From positions 1 to 64,000 of the forward strand of contig JAGPUQ010000021.1 in the NCBI GenBank assembly GCA_018069525.1: a DNA stretch of 64,000 nt. The letters are read 5' to 3'. Origin of the DNA: Porticoccaceae bacterium. GTDB lineage: Bacteria > Pseudomonadota > Gammaproteobacteria > Pseudomonadales > Porticoccaceae. Made by a program: the position numbers and the translations under genes. Within the stretch, counting starts at the first letter, position 1. Each line of letters begins with the position of its first letter. The notes beneath the pieces are model-generated. The model was not told the origin of the DNA and did no database searches. It saw only the letters and a program-made list of their open reading frames with translations. This document shows, piece after piece, positions 1-63,646 of the stretch.

Positions 1-122
1 GGTTTGGTGTCTGTGGTTTGGTGCCTGTGGTTTGGTGTCTGTGGTTTGGTGCCTGTGGTTTGGTGTCTGTGGTTTGGTGCCTGTGGTTTGGTGTCTGTGG
101 TTTGGTGCCTGTGGTTTGGTGT
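1..122. repeat. 14-bp tandem repeat, two alternating variants
   Basis: Eight full copies and one partial copy of a 14-bp unit, GGTTTGGTGTCTGT alternating strictly with GGTTTGGTGCCTGT, so the true period is 28 bp. The strand is G/T-rich with almost no A. The array runs off the left edge, so its full length is unknown. It ends at 122, about 165 bp before the first gene. There are no spacers, so it is not CRISPR. Confidence 0.95.
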
Positions 123-1741: not shown

Positions 1742-2065
1742 ATCGTTTTAAAACACCAGGATCGGCAGACCTCCTTCCCTGTTTTCTGGGCCCTTCATCC
1801 CGAAAATTGATACTATAACCCATTGATTCTTAAGGTTGTTCGCTCTGAACAAGAGCCCCTGGGAACAAGAGCCTCGGGAACAATGAGAATAGTCGGGTAT
1901 AGGTTGTCGTGCACACCGTATATAAACAGAGTAGGCCTTCTAGCGTATTGTTTCTATAATCAAATTGTTTTGGCTACGGTTTCCGAAATCTAAAATGGAG
2001 TCGAAAGTAATATAAAGCCTGTGGCTATGGAATAAATTGTTATGTGTCACAAATCGGAGTATTAG
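1742..2065. other. Intergenic region with imperfect tandem repeat
   Basis: No credible gene. It contains an imperfect 15-16 bp tandem repeat at 1847-1887 (GAACAAGAGCCCCTGG, then GAACAAGAGCCTCGG, then a partial GAACAATGAG). The remainder probably holds the promoter of the cupin gene, but I see no convincing -35/-10 pair. Confidence 0.6.
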
Positions 2066-2380
2066 ATGGCTGGAAAGTATCCGGATAGAATCAGAGCGCT
2101 ACCACCTTATGATGGGCGTTTTGACGCATACAAACTTGAAGCAAAAGAAGGTGACGTTCTTTTCGCATCATATCCTGCTGGCACATCCATTCCTCCCCAT
2201 ATTCATGACACTGACAATCATGGCGTTATCACACGCGGTGAGTTGATATTGAGTATGAACGGCGAAGTAACTAAAGTAAGCGTGGGTGAGTGGTACCATG
2301 TTCCGGCAAATGTTGAGCACTCTGCTGAGTTTGATGTTGAAACAGACGAGATCGAATTCTGGTTCCACGAAAGCACATAA
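2066..2380 (+). CDS. Small cupin-domain protein
   Basis: 104 aa single-domain cupin. The metal-binding pattern is visible: H45, H47 and H52 in PPHIHDTDNHG, followed by GEL, with H85 in the second motif (VPANVEHSAEF). Proteins of this size are usually small metal-dependent enzymes or ligand-binding proteins, and the substrate cannot be read from sequence. The start is preceded by CGGAG. It lies 86 bp upstream of a Baeyer-Villiger monooxygenase on the same strand and may be co-transcribed with it. Confidence 0.85.
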   Translation: MAGKYPDRIRALPPYDGRFDAYKLEAKEGDVLFASYPAGTSIPPHIHDTDNHGVITRGELILSMNGEVTKVSVGEWYHVPANVEHSAEFDVETDEIEFWFHEST

Positions 2381-2466
2381 CCAATCACCCCACTGGAATT
2401 TATAATTCTCACCATCATGATGGTGGGAACAACCCTGAATTAAATTCACCTAATAGAGGATGAGTA

Positions 2467-48744: not shown

Positions 48745-49245
48745 TTGATAAATAACGATATTTTACGCCGCGTCCGCTACATCTTTGATTTTGGCGATAC
48801 CAAAATGGTCGCAATATTTGTGTTAGCCGATCACCAGGTGACGCGGGAACAGATTAGTAACTGGCTAAAGAAAGATGACGATGCTGCTTTCGAAGAGTGT
48901 GCTGACACCGAGCTTGCCATTTTTCTCAACGGTTTGATTAACGACAAGCGCGGGAAGAAAGAGGGCTCTCCCCACGAGCCCGAGCAACGCTTAACCAACA
49001 ACATTATTTTTATGAAGTTAAAAATCGCCCTTAATCTAAAAGCCGAAGATGTGCTGGCGATAATGGAGTTGGCAGGTTTTGTAATGAGCAAGCATGAATT
49101 AAGCGCCTTCTTCCGAAAGTCAGACCACAAGCACTATCGGGTTTGTCAGGACCAAATTTTGCGAAATTTTCTGCAAGGTTTGCAAATTAAATATCGCGGA
49201 AACTCCGAATCAAAAGCCCCTTTTGATTGGAAAGGCACGTCTTAA
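48745..49245 (+). CDS. DUF1456 family protein (YehS-like)
   Basis: 166 aa from a TTG preceded by AGGAAAG. Two DUF1456 repeats (about 3-70 and 88-150), each with the pattern NNDILRRVRYIFDF... The second is MKLKIALNLKAEDVLAIMELAGF...HYRVCQDQILRNFLQGL. The family is conserved in gammaproteobacteria, soluble, and of unknown function. Its last 60 codons and about 70 bp downstream are repeated, diverged, at 59002-59277, which frames the island that follows. Confidence 0.92.
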   Translation: MINNDILRRVRYIFDFGDTKMVAIFVLADHQVTREQISNWLKKDDDAAFEECADTELAIFLNGLINDKRGKKEGSPHEPEQRLTNNIIFMKLKIALNLKAEDVLAIMELAGFVMSKHELSAFFRKSDHKHYRVCQDQILRNFLQGLQIKYRGNSESKAPFDWKGTS

Positions 49246-49314
49246 TTCCTGGGAATACTAAGCTAATACTGCCTGATTTTGGCTTTCTGCACGGTTGTAC
49301 TTATATTCAGGTAT
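49066..49314 (+). repeat. Left copy of ~250-bp diverged direct repeat
   Basis: Begins near residue 108 of the DUF1456 gene and continues about 70 bp past its stop. It matches 59002-59277 with small indels in the non-coding part. By my count the coding part (about 190 bp) has roughly 20 mismatches, mostly at third codon positions. Confidence 0.88.
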
Positions 49315-49493
49315 TCCTTGGTCTGCCCAGTATTTTTTCGTAACCAAACCGTGAGTACATAGCCAGCATCAATGAAAGTGTTATATAAAAAGTAACGAAA
49401 ATTAATCTTGCTAACGGATCAGACCAGAATGCTGTACGCGAAGTATTTATGGCCATTCAACGCACTTTGGTCGCCTACACACATACTTCTTGT

Positions 49494-50459
49494 TTAACCA
49501 CCGCCGTATGTAGTAAAACTCAGGCCGACATAAACTCCGTAGCCAGCCAAGAGTACTCCACCTTCCAACCTGCTTAGACGACGCCCCGTATACAAGAATA
49601 GTAACAGCAGTAGAGACGATCCCAGCATGACCCATTGGTCGAATTGCAGAATTCTTGCGTGGACTGGAAGTGGCTGAAGGAGCGCAGATACACCTAGAAT
49701 CCCCAACAAATTAAAGATATTGCTGCCAAGTATGTTTCCGACAGCGACATCTGCGTGCCGGCGCAGCGCCGCGATCACCGAAATTGAAAGCTCTGGAAGG
49801 GATGTGCCAACTGCTACCAAGGTCAGACCAATAACTGCCTCGGAAACCCCAAAGTGTTCTGCAATCCCGACGGCCCCCATAAGTAGTACCTGTGATCCAG
49901 AAATTAACAGCAGTAGACCAATAATCACGGTCGCTACAATCCATGCCACTGATTTCGGTAGAGCGGTAAGTTCTTCGGCCTCGGCTTTGTGAAGTTCCGC
50001 AGAAGGTGCGGCGTGGAAGCTTTCGCTCCAATATGCCCATACCAGGTAAGCCAGTAAGACCGTCAAGAAAATTACGGCGTCCGCAGGACCCAGCGCACTT
50101 CCACCGACCAGAACCAGAAATAAAATGCTTGCCGCTACGACCGTGACTGCGTCTCGGCGTAGTACCAACGGTTTGACTGCCAGCGGCGTGATCAGCGCAC
50201 ATATCCCTAGAATCAGCAAAATATTGCCTATATTGCTACCCACAACGTTGCCAATAGCGATATCCGGTCGCTGATTTAATGCTGCATCTACAGAGACCAC
50301 CAGCTCTGGCGCAGAAGTGCCGAAGCCTACGATAACGAGACCGCTTAGCAATGGCGATACATCGAGACGTCTTGCAGTAGACAACGCGCCTCGAATCAAG
50401 GCTTCACCACCCACAGTAAGCAAGCCCACGCCGAGTATCAAAAAAAGAAAATTCATCAT
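49494..50459 (-). CDS. Calcium/sodium antiporter (CaCA family, YrbG-like)
   Basis: 321 aa with about ten membrane helices in two inverted halves. Both alpha-repeats are present: GFGTSAPELVVS with IGNVVGSNIGNI in the first half, and GTSLPELSIS with VGNILGSNIFNL in the second. It exchanges Ca2+ (or other cations) for Na+ or H+. It lies between attC-like sites, with a 55-bp leader after the R' box at 50515-50521, as expected for an integron cassette. Confidence 0.9.
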   Translation of the reverse strand: MMNFLFLILGVGLLTVGGEALIRGALSTARRLDVSPLLSGLVIVGFGTSAPELVVSVDAALNQRPDIAIGNVVGSNIGNILLILGICALITPLAVKPLVLRRDAVTVVAASILFLVLVGGSALGPADAVIFLTVLLAYLVWAYWSESFHAAPSAELHKAEAEELTALPKSVAWIVATVIIGLLLLISGSQVLLMGAVGIAEHFGVSEAVIGLTLVAVGTSLPELSISVIAALRRHADVAVGNILGSNIFNLLGILGVSALLQPLPVHARILQFDQWVMLGSSLLLLLFLYTGRRLSRLEGGVLLAGYGVYVGLSFTTYGGG

Positions 50460-50514
50460 GGTTTATGAACTACCGAGTATAGGGATTGATGAGTTCACAG
50501 AAAACACATTGAAA

Positions 50515-50592
50515 GCCTAACGCCTGCATAACTTGGAGAAAATACAGAGCGAAGCGGCGTATTTACGCTCAACGTTAATGTGCTTGTTAGGC
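50515..50592 (-). other. attC-like integron recombination site (A)
   Basis: 78 bp bounded by GCCTAAC (50515-50521) and GTTAGGC (50586-50592), a perfect inverted 7-bp pair equal to the R''/R' boxes (RYYYAAC/GTTRRRY). Inside are L-box-like TTGGAG / CTCAA with unpaired bases and a central stem AAATAC / GTATTT. On the minus strand the upstream gene's TAA stop lies within GCCTAAC, the arrangement of many gene cassettes. Confidence 0.75.
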
Positions 50593-51766
50593 AACCTTAT
50601 TCGGGACAGCATTTCCAGCCGTGTTGAAGTGCGCATGGGGGTAGTTTGGCTCACGTTTTTGAAACGAAAGAATAGAGGAATTCTGAATCACGCCATCATC
50701 AATATTGATCGCCCGTCGAATAGTATCATTTTTCTGCCAACTATCACGGCCGGCTAGTATAGTCGGTAAATAAACGATGAGGGCGGCAGAAATTGATCGC
50801 GTGGCACTTTCCCAGAGATAGCTAGGTGTGTGATCCACGGCGTAATAATCGATGGTTTCATATTTAAATGTCGGATTCTCGAATGTGGTTGGTCTGGCAA
50901 AAAAGAACCCCATTCCCTCGTCGCAACTGACGTCAATAATCAGACTATTGGTCTTGAGGCATGCACTTTCTTCTTCGGTAACAAAGTCGGTAGGATTTGC
51001 TGTGTCTTGAAAGGTTCCGTTTACGATGATATCTGCTTCACTTATCAAGTCATTCAGTGGGTGCTCGGTCCCATCGTGTTCCACCACCATCATGCGGGCC
51101 TCGCCCTCGCTGCCTGTGCGAATTCTGACATAGTTACAATCGAGCACCTCTTCACGCACTTCGTGGTCAGGGCGCTGAATGCAGATGGTGATATCTCTAA
51201 AACCATGCGCCTTGAGAGCGTATATCGCACCGCGGCTGACGGCACCAAAACCAAAAATGACTATTTTGCGTTGATTGCCGTAATGCCCATCGATACCTTT
51301 AAGTTGCAAGGCATGTATGACAGCGCAATAGCCAGCCATTTCGTTGTTCTTATAGAATGTATGACGACCAATGTGCCCGTCAGGAGACCAAACATACATA
51401 TCCTCAAAGGCAATAAGCGTCTGCTTACGATCGATAGCCGCCTGGGTGATGTCCTGTTGCTGCACACAATGCACATAGCCCCAAAGAGTTCCTCCTTCGC
51501 GAAGACTCTGTAAATCAGCTAAGACTGGCTTGTTAATAATGACCGAGCCAATGTCGGCCAATAATTTATGGCGTGAGGCAATGCCACCTGTCATGGCGGC
51601 AATTTCGGAATCTGCGATACCAAAGGGTGCGCCATAACCCTCTTCGAATACTAGCAGTCGGCGAAGTGCTTCAGGAATACGCGCTAAATGCTCTGGGTGA
51701 ATAGGAAATCGTCGTTCATCTACTTTTTTTTGAAGAGCCAATGACGCCCACTAATGCTGTGTTCAT
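50587..51766 (-). CDS. N5-(carboxyethyl)ornithine synthase-like/alanine dehydrogenase family, with N-terminal frameshift
   Basis: The intact frame (50587-51741, 384 aa) belongs to the AlaDH/PNT-type family. The nucleotide site is VIFGFGAVSRGAIYAL, and YETIDYYAVDHTPSYLWE is near the C-terminus, as in carboxyethylornithine synthase. The family N-terminus appears only in another frame. The ATG at 51766 (behind AAGGAA) gives MNTALVGVIGSSKK, then an A8 run (51724-51731) shifts out of frame. Removing one A would join it to VDERRFPIHPEHL. Either the gene is broken, or slippage at A8 or the TTG at 51741 rescues it. Confidence 0.8.
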
Positions 51767-51920
51767 GTCGTCGTTTCCTTGTGATTAAAAAATTCAATGG
51801 GTGTGACTTCACGAACGAATTAGCAGTTTCGCCAATGGGCCTGTTTATTTATGCTCTACTCTGTCGAAAGCATTCAAGGTTTCATGAGGCGAAACTCTGC
51901 ACAAATGATGGGTGTGTCAA

Positions 51921-51974
51921 ACCTAACTCTCAAAGCGGTGGTGCGTAGCATCCGTCTGACCATGCTTGTTATGA
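51921..51974 (-). other. attC-like integron recombination site (B)
   Basis: 54 bp bounded by ACCTAAC (51921-51927) and GTTATGA (51968-51974). Inner arms AAGC / GCTT and GGT / ACC are interrupted by unpaired bases, with a short TGC/GCA central stem. On the minus strand the HCCA-isomerase stop (TAA) lies inside CATAAC. The second R box deviates from GTTRRRY, as in several natural sites. Confidence 0.65.
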
Positions 51975-52634
51975 ATCATTTTTTTTAACTCTATCTATTG
52001 CTCGAGGCCGATTTATTATGTCTTGGTATATCGCATCATTAGTTTTATAGGTGCCTTTTATAACGTTGGAAAGGTATTCAAATTGGTCGTTACCCCAAAA
52101 TAGTTCATTATCAAAAATTATCGTGGGAACGCCAAAAACGCCTTTTGAAATCGCTTCATCCGTATTATTTTTTAGGGCTTCCTTGACGTCTTTGCTGTCA
52201 ATGGTTTTCTTTATCGCGTTACCGTCAAGCCCTATCTTCAATGCAATATTGGAAACCACCTCTATATTTCCAATATCTTTGCCTTCGCCCCAACCTGCAT
52301 GAAACAGAGCCGAAATCAATTTTTCTTGATGCTCTCCACTAACCATTTTCAGTGAAGCTCTTAATGCCGATAACGAATTGAAAGGATGATATTTTGGAAA
52401 CGATAAAGGTAAGTTATTTGAAGAAGCATAAAATAAACAATACTTAAAGAGCCACTCTCTTTTGGGTGGGATCTCGGCAGGTCCTAATTGTCCCCAATGA
52501 TCTAATAGCTTTCCAAAGACTACGGGTTTAATTGTCAGGTCAACATTATGATTAGGGCAAAACTCTTCTATTTTCTTCCATGAAAAATAAGCATACGGAG
52601 ATAGATAGTCAAAATAGAACTCTAGTTTCTGCAT
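51969..52634 (-). CDS. 2-hydroxychromene-2-carboxylate isomerase/DsbA-like (kappa GST) protein
   Basis: 221 aa thioredoxin-fold protein. The N-terminus FYFDYLSPYAYFSW carries the SPY/SPF glutathione-site serine of HCCA isomerases and kappa GSTs. GVFGVPTIIF with a cis-Pro and WGNDQFEYL complete the signature. Family members isomerise naphthalene-pathway intermediates or conjugate glutathione. It starts 13 bp after an R' box (52648-52654), and its stop lies in the next attC, so it is a typical cassette gene. Confidence 0.87.
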   Translation of the reverse strand: MQKLEFYFDYLSPYAYFSWKKIEEFCPNHNVDLTIKPVVFGKLLDHWGQLGPAEIPPKREWLFKYCLFYASSNNLPLSFPKYHPFNSLSALRASLKMVSGEHQEKLISALFHAGWGEGKDIGNIEVVSNIALKIGLDGNAIKKTIDSKDVKEALKNNTDEAISKGVFGVPTIIFDNELFWGNDQFEYLSNVIKGTYKTNDAIYQDIINRPRAIDRVKKNDS

Positions 52635-53068
52635 CGATGATTCCTATGCCTAACGTTCAAGTTGCCCAGTCGTTTTACACAGAGCAGAGTGAGACGGCGC
52701 GGCGTATAAAATGGTTCGGGTTAAGCGTATTATTGGGTGATTATACTGTAGCTAAGGTCGGAGGCACTCCATGTTGATTTTCTTCAGAGTTACTGTCGGT
52801 TGTCATAAATACAACAATTACAATAGGGGTGGTAAAAGGTATCAATAAGGCCAATAGCCATCACCCACCGCGATTAGTGTCATCAAGTCACCGAACAGAA
52901 GTCGCTAAACCAGGGGTAAGAACAGCCGATGTGTGATTTGTTCTTCACCTAACAGTAAGTTATGCCCGCGGCATCTTTAGATGGCTGGGGTGTCACGACA
53001 CCAGTCACTTAATTTCAACTGGTGTCTGTCCTTGTTCTTTGTATCAAAGATGACTCATACCACGAATT
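52635..53068. other. Intergenic region with attC-like site
   Basis: About 434 bp between the HCCA-isomerase start and the copB stop. It contains the attC-like site at 52648-52726; the remainder (52727-53068) shows no credible gene on either strand. Confidence 0.5.
52648..52726 (-). other. attC-like integron recombination site (C)
   Basis: 79 bp bounded by GCCTAAC (52648-52654) and GTTAAGC (52720-52726), both fitting the R-box consensus. A GTTCAAG arm next to the first box resembles the classical L-box. Inner pairing (TTTTA / TAAAA) is partial, so this is the weakest of the three island sites. Confidence 0.55.
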
Positions 53069-59001: not shown

Positions 59002-59156
59002 TAATGGAGCTGGCAGGTTTTGTAATGAGCAAGCATGAATTAAACGCTTTCCTTCGCAAGTCAGACCACAAACACTATCGGGTTTGCCAGGATCAAATTT
59101 TGCGAAACTTCCTACAAGGTTTTCAAATCAAATATCGCGGTAATTCCGAATCATAA
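59002..59156 (+). pseudogene. C-terminal fragment of a DUF1456 gene
   Basis: Encodes only the last ~50 residues of a DUF1456 protein (VMELAGFVMSKHELNAFLRK ... QDQILRNFLQGFQIKYRGNSES), ending at a TAA where the full gene reads AAA. An in-frame extension back to 58947 has no similarity to the family. Remnant of a second, related copy. Its near-synonymous divergence from the left copy suggests that it came from a gene once under selection. Confidence 0.8.
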
Positions 59157-59277
59157 GCCCCTTTTGAATGGAAAGCCACGCCTTAACTCTTCGAAAAAAC
59201 TACGGCTTTCTGGGAAAGACTCAGCTAATACTGCCTGTTTTGGCTTGCTGCACGGTTGCGCTTATACTCAGGCATTA
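59002..59277 (+). repeat. Right copy of ~250-bp diverged direct repeat
   Basis: Counterpart of 49066-49314. Matches the end of the DUF1456 gene and roughly 100 bp beyond. The mismatches in the coding part are mostly synonymous. Confidence 0.88.
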
Positions 59278-63079: not shown

Positions 63080-63529
63080 CTAGTTAGGTGGCATCATGAC
63101 ATCTGCGGGCGGGAAAGAATCAAATTCTGGAATGCCGGAAAACTCTGGAACCCAATGGTGTCTGTATTGCACCTGCTCGACATAGTTTGGTTTGGGGAAA
63201 TTCTTATCTACGAAGCAGCCGACCGCAAAGCCAATAAAGCGTGAAATGCCCGGGAAGTGTTTCTCCGCTTGCTCGAGCGTCCAATATAACGTGGTGCCAC
63301 AGTTAGGACAGAAGTTATAAGCAACGCCCACGCTATTAGCCGAATCCGAAAACGTTTTGGTTTCTCCGCTTATTTCGAGCACTTGTTCTCGCGCGTACCA
63401 GCATGAAACCTGAAAGACGCTACCCGTGCGCTTTTGGCAATAGTCGCAATGACAGACCAGCACCCGAAACGGGTCACCCTCGACAGTCGCCGATACTTTC
63501 CCGCACGCGCATTCGGTTTTACGCTGCAT
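63080..63529 (-). CDS. GFA (glutathione-dependent formaldehyde-activating) family protein
   Basis: 149 aa. Zinc-binding cysteines typical of GFA/CENP-V: CACGK, CHCDYCQKRTGS and FCPNCGTTLYW. Function of most members unknown; they are frequent integron cassette genes. Starts about 48 bp after attC site D. Its last codons form GCCACCTAAC followed by TAG, an R''-like box, but no matching R' box is seen beyond, so its own attC is probably truncated. Confidence 0.9.
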   Translation of the reverse strand: MQRKTECACGKVSATVEGDPFRVLVCHCDYCQKRTGSVFQVSCWYAREQVLEISGETKTFSDSANSVGVAYNFCPNCGTTLYWTLEQAEKHFPGISRFIGFAVGCFVDKNFPKPNYVEQVQYRHHWVPEFSGIPEFDSFPPADVMMPPN

Positions 63530-63577: not shown

Positions 63578-63646
63578 ACCTAACGCCCAGCTCAGCGGGC
63601 AATTGGAGCGCAGCGTAAAGTGCTCCGCTGAAGCTGATTGTTATGT
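63578..63646 (-). other. Textbook attC integron site (D)
   Basis: 69 bp bounded by ACCTAAC (63578-63584) and GTTATGT (63640-63646). Inner arms CAGCTCAGCGG and CCGCTGAAGCTG pair along 11 bp with one unpaired A, and a central stem GGAGC / GCTCC caps the structure. On the minus strand it starts 3 bp past the stop of the gene at 63649. Length, order of boxes and the single extrahelical base are classic. Confidence 0.88.

What the first reader, a model, noticed from the sequence alone, without database searches (positions are those of the whole stretch)
49400..52726. Integron-like cassette array (three same-strand genes separated by attC-type palindromes) with no integrase in view
Three minus-strand genes (antiporter, carboxyethylornithine-synthase-like, HCCA-isomerase-like) alternate with three palindromes bounded by RYYYAAC/GTTRRRY boxes (50515-50592, 51921-51974, 52648-52726). 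Two stop codons lie inside the R'' box, and two genes start a short distance (13 and 55 bp) after an R' box, as in known gene cassettes. The three genes are functionally unrelated. With no intI here, this would be an orphan attC cluster (CALIN) or a piece of a larger chromosomal integron.
Basis: partly seen in the sequence, partly recalled or inferred. Interest (0 to 1): 0.75.

Follow-up and report, generated by a model that had tools for sequence, protein, structure and literature searches.

The report
Decaying integron cassette cluster, integrase elsewhere
Three unrelated genes sit here as leftover integron gene cassettes, one still carrying a good recombination site and the others decayed ones, in a genome whose integrase gene and main cassette array lie elsewhere; this is a known kind of element, with an unusually clear record of how its genes moved.

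Summary
Of the three palindromes, only 50515-50592 is a well-formed attC: 31.0 bits, E 2e-5, with a covariance model I built from 80 attC sites outside this window. Site 51921-51974 is a decayed attC. Site 52648-52726 keeps only the R' half. Gene 3 has no attC after it.

Relatives supply independent evidence. Gene 3 homologues are attC-bearing cassettes in two same-family genomes. The gene 2 homology block in several other genomes starts at or within 7 bases of the IntI crossover (G^TTAGRY), and in one it ends at the R'' box. Two gene 2 homologues are followed by attC left arms.

The genome is not integrase-free. It has an intact intI with attI and cassettes on contig C9, a truncated second intI, and 28 attC calls.

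Verdict: a decaying CALIN, a new member of a known kind. The most unusual by-product is a family of attI-like elements without intI at the heads of several cassette clusters, including one at 1999-2042 in this window.

The parts
52947..52985 (-). attI-core-like site: hairpin ATGCC-gcg-GGCAT followed by AACTTACT^GTTAGGT; proposed 5' end of the cluster
   Evidence: 3rd best of about 128,000 window positions with a PWM from 12 intI-adjacent attI cores; no sequence homology to the genome's own attI element
52648..52726 (-). Reader site A: only an attC-type right half (AACGTTAGGC) is recognisable; left arm absent or decayed. It may end a non-coding cassette that starts at about 52952
   Evidence: not found by R1 or R2; right half 9.3 bits, left half -7.6; fold z +2.15
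51969..52634 (-). Gene 1: DsbA / 2-hydroxychromene-2-carboxylate isomerase (kappa-GST-like) family protein, 221 aa, 36.5% GC; stop TAA-CAAG overlaps R''
   Evidence: PF01323 2e-36; PDB 3fz5 6e-19
51921..51974 (-). Reader site B: decayed attC (TCATAACAAG ... GTTAGGT), both boxes present but arms not complementary; its R' box is the 5' boundary of the gene 2 unit
   Evidence: 11.9 bits, E 1.2; half-sites 9.5 and 7.3; homology of gene 2 units starts here in other genomes
50587..51766 (-). Gene 2: AlaDH/PNT-family (carboxyethylornithine-synthase-like) protein. Natural ATG at 51766 is put out of frame by an extra A in an A8 run; ORF callers start at TTG 51741
   Evidence: PF01262, PF05222; PDB alanine dehydrogenases; frame check
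50515..50592 (-). Reader site C: well-formed attC, perfect R''/R' (GCCTAAC/GTTAGGC), L arms with extrahelical base, R'' overlaps the gene 2 stop
   Evidence: 31.0 bits, E 2.4e-5 in window and 0.001 genome-wide; both half-sites top rank; bottom strand pairs 7/7 R-box bases
49494..50459 (-). Gene 3: calcium/sodium antiporter (TIGR00367), 321 aa, starts 55 bp after R' of site C; no attC after it
   Evidence: TIGR00367 236.5 bits; homologues in attC-bearing cassettes in G016 and G356
63578..63646 (-). Strong attC, distal member of a second array that continues beyond the window to the end of contig C16 (four more attC)
   Evidence: 48.6 bits, E 1e-9; L009 hits; genome scan
63080..63529 (-). GFA-family gene, last cassette gene of that array; no attC after it
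   Evidence: PF04828 1e-21; position 49 bp after R' of the 63578 attC
1999..2042 (+). Solo attI-like element without intI
   Evidence: 54.8 bits with a 44-nt PWM that includes it; next unrelated site 13.7 in 537 kb; best window position with the attI-core PWM that did not include it
2066..2394 (+). Cupin gene (2066-2380) directly after the solo attI-like element; its stop overlaps an attC left arm (ACATAACCAATCACCCCACT, 2375-2394), no right arm
   Evidence: PF07883; left half-site 11.0 bits

Best explanation
The segment 52.95-49.49 kb (minus strand) is a small, decaying cluster of integron gene cassettes without a local integrase (a CALIN). Shown: gene 2 is followed by a well-formed attC (50515-50592), and genes 2 and 3 are cassette-borne or cassette-bounded in other genomes. 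Inferred: single cassettes, each a gene plus an attC folded on the bottom strand, were inserted one after another by an integron integrase that cuts between G and TT of each R' box, with the 5' end at or near the attI-like site at 52953. The sites then decayed: A lost its left arm, B lost arm pairing, the last attC was lost, and gene 2 picked up a frameshift. The genome's intact IntI (contig C9) could in principle still recombine site C in trans; that was not tested.
For: Model R2, built from 80 attC sites outside the window, finds site C at 31 bits. In 176 kb around homologous genes it gave only three hits, two of them the attC pair that flanks the gene 3 homologue in G016. Half-site ranks. 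Gene 3 is flanked by two attC in G016 (61.7 and 41.3 bits) with a 54-nt leader against 55 nt here, and is followed by an attC in G356 (35.6 bits). Gene 2 homology blocks start at the R' box: G121 and G351 at 51927, G183 at 51926, G121 second copy at 51925; G161 starts at 51922 and G313 at 51934. In G121 the block ends exactly at GCCTAACAAG. attC left arms follow gene 2 in G121 (19.4 bits, none of about 126,000 background positions as high) and G313 (13.0). Genes are patchy: gene 2 in 13/294 and gene 3 in 21/294 genomes of the order; no gene 2 and only a 45% gene 3 relative in three same-genus genomes. GC differs between the three genes (36.5, 47.4, 51.1%). The genome has an intact intI and many attC.
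Against: Only one of the three sites passes a covariance threshold, so a strict two-attC CALIN rule is not met. Most gene 2 and gene 3 homologues in the order have no attC nearby, and the gene 2 block in G038 starts only at 51852. Gene 1 has no close relative anywhere searched (best 47% aa). The conserved 5' block of gene 2 could partly reflect a promoter. No strain with an empty or rearranged site was available.
Confidence: 0.88

Rival explanations
1. Degraded distal part of the same chromosomal integron whose array tail ends at about 63.08 kb: one long array was broken by insertion of other genes (alkane monooxygenase, copper operon and others), leaving this piece 10 kb downstream. (A sub-hypothesis of the best explanation about how the cluster arose.)
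For: Same contig and same strand as the array tail at 63578-66541; 5' context consistent with cassettes.
Against: An attI-core-like site lies at the head of the cluster; the intervening genes include plus-strand, apparently chromosomal genes; the attC sites differ from those of the tail.
Confidence: 0.25
2. Cassettes inserted one by one by an IntI acting in trans at a secondary (attG/attI-like) chromosomal site. (Also a sub-hypothesis about origin.)
For: Intact intI elsewhere in the genome; dispersed single attC sites in this genome; attG insertion is documented (Loot et al. 2024, cited in PMC12444791 and PMC12901181); in G330 and G351 gene 3 and gene 2 homologues sit at the same attI-like site after a LysR gene with no intI.
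Against: No dated insertion and no empty site in a close relative; decayed sites suggest age.
Confidence: 0.4
3. The palindromes are chance and the genes are ordinary horizontally acquired genes.
For: Sites A and B are individually at background; many homologues are not near attC.
Against: Site C score; TAA-CAAG stops in two adjacent genes; cassette homologues of gene 3; gene 2 boundaries at the R' crossover in several genomes.
Confidence: 0.03

Closest known systems
[quoted passage not shown] IntegronFinder class, PMC9024848)
   Same: Same-strand unrelated genes separated by attC-type sites, no local intI, in a genome that also has a complete integron
   Different: Only one attC is well formed; two are decayed and the last is missing, so the default two-attC rule is not formally met
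Dispersed CALINs of Xanthomonas away from the ilvD integron (PMC12444791)
   Same: Integrase-less clusters at several chromosomal loci of integron-bearing genomes; the paper notes that CALINs can be mobilised in trans by a functional IntI
   Different: Different lineage; here several clusters start with a recognisable attI-like element
Cassette insertion at attG sites (Loot et al. 2024, read only through citing papers)
   Same: Cassettes found outside attI/attC arrays, including single dispersed attC
   Different: attG sites are described as non-classical and divergent; the solo sites seen here share a 44-nt attI-like sequence
Gene 3 cassette of same-family genomes G016 and G356
   Same: Same antiporter family (about 80% aa), near-identical R'-to-start spacing in G016 (54 vs 55 nt)
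   Different: There an attC follows the gene; here it is lost

Membership tests
attC site (site C, 50515-50592) | R''/R' inverted boxes RYYYAAC/GTTRRRY | tested here: met
   GCCTAAC/GTTAGGC, 7/7 complementary
attC site (site C, 50515-50592) | L''/L' pairing with extrahelical base and variable terminal structure; score above background in a covariance model | tested here: met
   R2 31.0 bits, E 2.4e-5; arms aligned; fold. The narrower first model R1 missed the full site
attC site (site C, 50515-50592) | Recombined by an integron integrase | not testable with these tools
   needs an in vivo assay
attC site (site B, 51921-51974) | Paired L arms and covariance score above background | tested here: not met
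   11.9 bits, E 1.2; arm score below all genuine sites; fold z +0.25. The R' box is nevertheless a conserved unit boundary
attC site (site A, 52648-52726) | Paired arms and covariance score above background | tested here: not met
   not reported by R1 or R2; left half -7.6, right half 9.3
CALIN | At least two attC sites close together | tested here: inconclusive
   one well-formed attC plus a decayed one 1.3 kb away and a half-site
CALIN | No intI next to the cluster | tested here: met
   no intI match on C16
Gene cassette (genes 2 and 3) | Unit bounded by the G^TTRRRY crossover and carried as a unit in other genomes | tested here: met
Gene cassette (gene 1) | Carried as a unit in other genomes | tested here: inconclusive
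   closest relative 47% aa, no attC near it
Complete integron | intI + attI + cassettes at this locus | tested here: not met
   intI is on C9 and, truncated, on C4

The most novel reading that the evidence does not exclude
The genome carries a family of duplicated attI platforms without integrase genes. A 44-nt attI-like core, part of a 270-300 nt conserved region, stands at the head of dispersed cassette clusters on C3, C12, C13 and at 2.0 kb of this window, besides the copy next to intI on C9. In the same-family genomes G330 and G351 the core precedes gene 3 and gene 2 homologues at one shared chromosomal site. A single trans-acting IntI would then load cassettes onto several chromosomal attI platforms rather than one.
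Probability: 0.25. Interest if true: 0.6.

Novelty: new member of a known kind. Interest (0 to 1): 0.36.

Why it matters
It is a clear case of cassette genes (a calcium/sodium antiporter and an alanine-dehydrogenase-like enzyme) being shared across families of one bacterial order as units cut at the IntI crossover. It shows sites in successive stages of decay: intact, unpaired arms, half-site, lost. If the solo attI-like elements prove to be working platforms, they would make it directly testable whether one integrase serves several chromosomal loading sites.

Tried and rejected
Plasmid database: no match. First attC model R1 (33 sites, no loop modelled) was too narrow: it missed site C as a full site, so I built R2 from its 80 matches. 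Folding energy is not diagnostic: genuine attC range from z -0.3 to -7.4, so it cannot confirm C, though A and B fall outside that range. A fourth attC after gene 3 (49405-49500) was considered and rejected: weak halves and strongly asymmetric arms. An attI-like element of the genome's own type upstream of gene 1 was sought and not found; only a general attI-core match remains. Gene 1 in 84,980 genomes gave one relative at 47% aa without attC. The gene 3 tree does not place the window gene with the G016 cassette gene, so a common cassette ancestor for those two is not shown. Chance palindromes: rejected for site C, not for A or B taken alone. Submitting the report failed once on formatting.
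Full report
SETTING. The window is positions 1-64000 of contig C16 (66,608 bp) of a 2.73-Mb draft genome in 27 contigs. A search for the integron integrase family TIGR02249 in this genome finds one full-length gene on C9 (431.6 bits, cut-off 265, 352-aa open frame). It also finds a truncated one on C4 (172.5 bits, residues 1-170) and XerC/D-like background hits on C24. The C9 gene is followed by an attI region and cassettes up to the contig end.

CHECK OF THE SITES. I collected attC sites from integron arrays next to intI in genomes of the same order. From 33 of them I built a covariance model, R1. It found 80 sites in 17 array regions, all in the cassette orientation. I then built R2 from the 80 matches; none comes from the window. 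R2 with filters off finds site C (50515-50592, minus) at 31.0 bits, E 2.4e-5, and a second, stronger site at 63578-63646 (48.6 bits). Site B scores 11.9 bits (E 1.2) and site A is not reported. In 176 kb around homologous genes elsewhere R2 gives only three hits; two are the attC pair flanking a gene 3 cassette.

HALF-SITES AND FOLDS. Half-site matrices from 104 attC, site C excluded, rank both halves of C at the top of about 126,000 positions (15.8 and 19.4 bits). B has moderate halves (9.5 and 7.3). A has only a right half (9.3 against -7.6). The bottom strand of C pairs all seven R-box bases (z -0.85); genuine attC of the genome range from z -0.3 to -7.4, while A (+2.15) and B (+0.25) do not pair the R boxes. 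Genes 1 and 2 are the only 2 of 62 ORFs of 150 aa or more in the window whose stop is TAA-CAAG, the R'' overlap typical of cassettes. So the array observation is real, but it consists of one good attC, one decayed attC and one half-site.

UPSTREAM END. A matrix from 12 intI-adjacent attI cores ranks 52953 (minus; GGGCATAACTTACT^GTTAGGT, preceded by a small hairpin) third among about 128,000 window positions. This suggests, without proving it, that the cluster begins there with a short non-coding cassette that ends at the right half of site A.

GENES. Gene 1 is a DsbA-fold protein of the HCCA-isomerase/kappa-GST kind. Its conserved ATG (51766) is followed by an A8 run with one A too many, so the normal frame is broken (MNTALVGVIGSSKKSR*), either a real frameshift or an assembly error. 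Gene 3 is a calcium/sodium antiporter (TIGR00367).

COMPARATIVE EVIDENCE. Gene 3: in same-family genome G016 the homologue (80% aa) lies between two strong attC (61.7 and 41.3 bits), 54 nt after the R' box against 55 nt here. In G356 it follows GTTAGGC and is followed by an attC of 35.6 bits. In G330 (87% aa) homology begins at 50507, a few bases inside the cassette end, and the gene sits at an attI-like site downstream of a LysR gene. Gene 2: the block homologous to the window starts at 51927 in G121 and G351, 51926 in G183 and 51925 in the second G121 copy. It starts at 51922 in G161 and 51934 in G313. These lie at or within 7 bases of the G^TT crossover, with unrelated DNA before it. In G121 it ends exactly at GCCTAACAAG. 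attC left arms follow gene 2 in G121 (19.4 bits) and G313 (13.0 bits), without right arms. The second G121 copy is preceded by sequence resembling, by eye, the intI-adjacent attI of G351, G014 and G319, and the G351 copy sits at the attI-like site. Both genes are patchy in the order (13 and 21 of 294 genomes). In three same-genus genomes gene 2 is absent and gene 3 has at most a 45% relative. Many homologues are not near attC, so these genes also exist as ordinary chromosomal genes. Gene 1 has no relative above 47% aa.

GENOME CONTEXT. R2 finds 28 attC in the genome: the C9 array, five at the right end of C16, two at the start of C11, clusters on C3, C4 and C12, and scattered single sites. A search of fetched stretches added more on C3, C11 and C13. 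The first 141 bases of C11 equal the end of C16 (reverse strand), and the ends of C9 and C10 match, so the assembly breaks inside shared cassettes. Which integrase-linked array continues into C16 cannot be told from this draft.

MECHANISM. Shown: cassette anatomy, one intact attC, cassette homologues elsewhere, an intact IntI gene in the genome. Inferred: insertion by IntI at R' crossovers, followed by decay. Not shown: that this genome's IntI inserted these cassettes, or that site C still works.

KNOWN OR NEW. Integrase-less clusters in genomes with a complete integron are well described (IntegronFinder 2.0, PMC9024848; Xanthomonas, PMC12444791). Insertion at non-classical attG sites is also known (Loot et al. 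2024, cited in PMC12444791 and PMC12901181; I did not read that paper itself). This cluster is a new member of that kind. The least ordinary observation is outside the finding. Seven attI-like elements score 52.6-57.9 bits with a 44-nt matrix built from them, while the next site in 537 kb scores 13.7. Five are in this genome (C3, C9, C12, C13 and window 1999-2042), and only the C9 copy has intI beside it. Homology among subsets of them extends 270-300 nt but never includes intI. They could be relics of old integrons or working platforms; I could not separate the two.

Noticed in passing
window 1999-2042 (+) and 2066-2394: Solo attI-like element directly before a cupin gene whose stop overlaps an attC left arm without a right arm: a lone, decayed cassette at an attI-like site with no intI.
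   Followed up: partly
L114 3692-3735, L117 4015-4058, L118 3446-3489 (-), L007 13338-13381, L214 6143-6186 (-), L215 6322-6365 (-): Further copies of the 44-nt attI-like element at the heads of cassette clusters on C3, C12 and C13, next to intI on C9, and before gene 3 and gene 2 homologues in G330 and G351; conserved region 270-300 nt, intI only at C9.
   Followed up: partly
window 63578-63646 and L009 3579-6542: Tail of another cassette array: five attC on the minus strand from the contig end to 63578, last gene a GFA-family protein (63080-63529).
   Followed up: yes
window 49061-49315 and 59002-59276: The 3' end of the DUF1456 gene plus downstream bases is duplicated (82% identity) and flanks 9.7 kb that hold the cassettes, a copper-resistance operon, a ferritin-like gene and a MscS-type channel: possibly one inserted block.
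   Followed up: partly
window 51712-51766: Gene 2 start codon is out of frame because of one extra A in an A8 run; homologues are in frame.
   Followed up: partly
L008 11726-12241 and 13448-16325: Second integron on C4 with a truncated intI (68% aa identical to the C9 IntI over 172 residues) and four attC.
   Followed up: partly
ends of contigs C9/C10 and C11/C16: Contig ends share identical sequence inside cassettes (141 nt for C11/C16), so the same cassette exists in two places or the assembly branches there.
   Followed up: partly
L155 (G121) and L158 (G313): Gene 2 homologues followed by an attC left arm but no right arm; the same half-attC state as the cupin cassette at 2375 in the window.
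   Followed up: partly
window 1-120: Short tandem repeat (GGTTTGGTGTCTGTGGTTTGGTGCCTGT) at the contig start.
   Followed up: no
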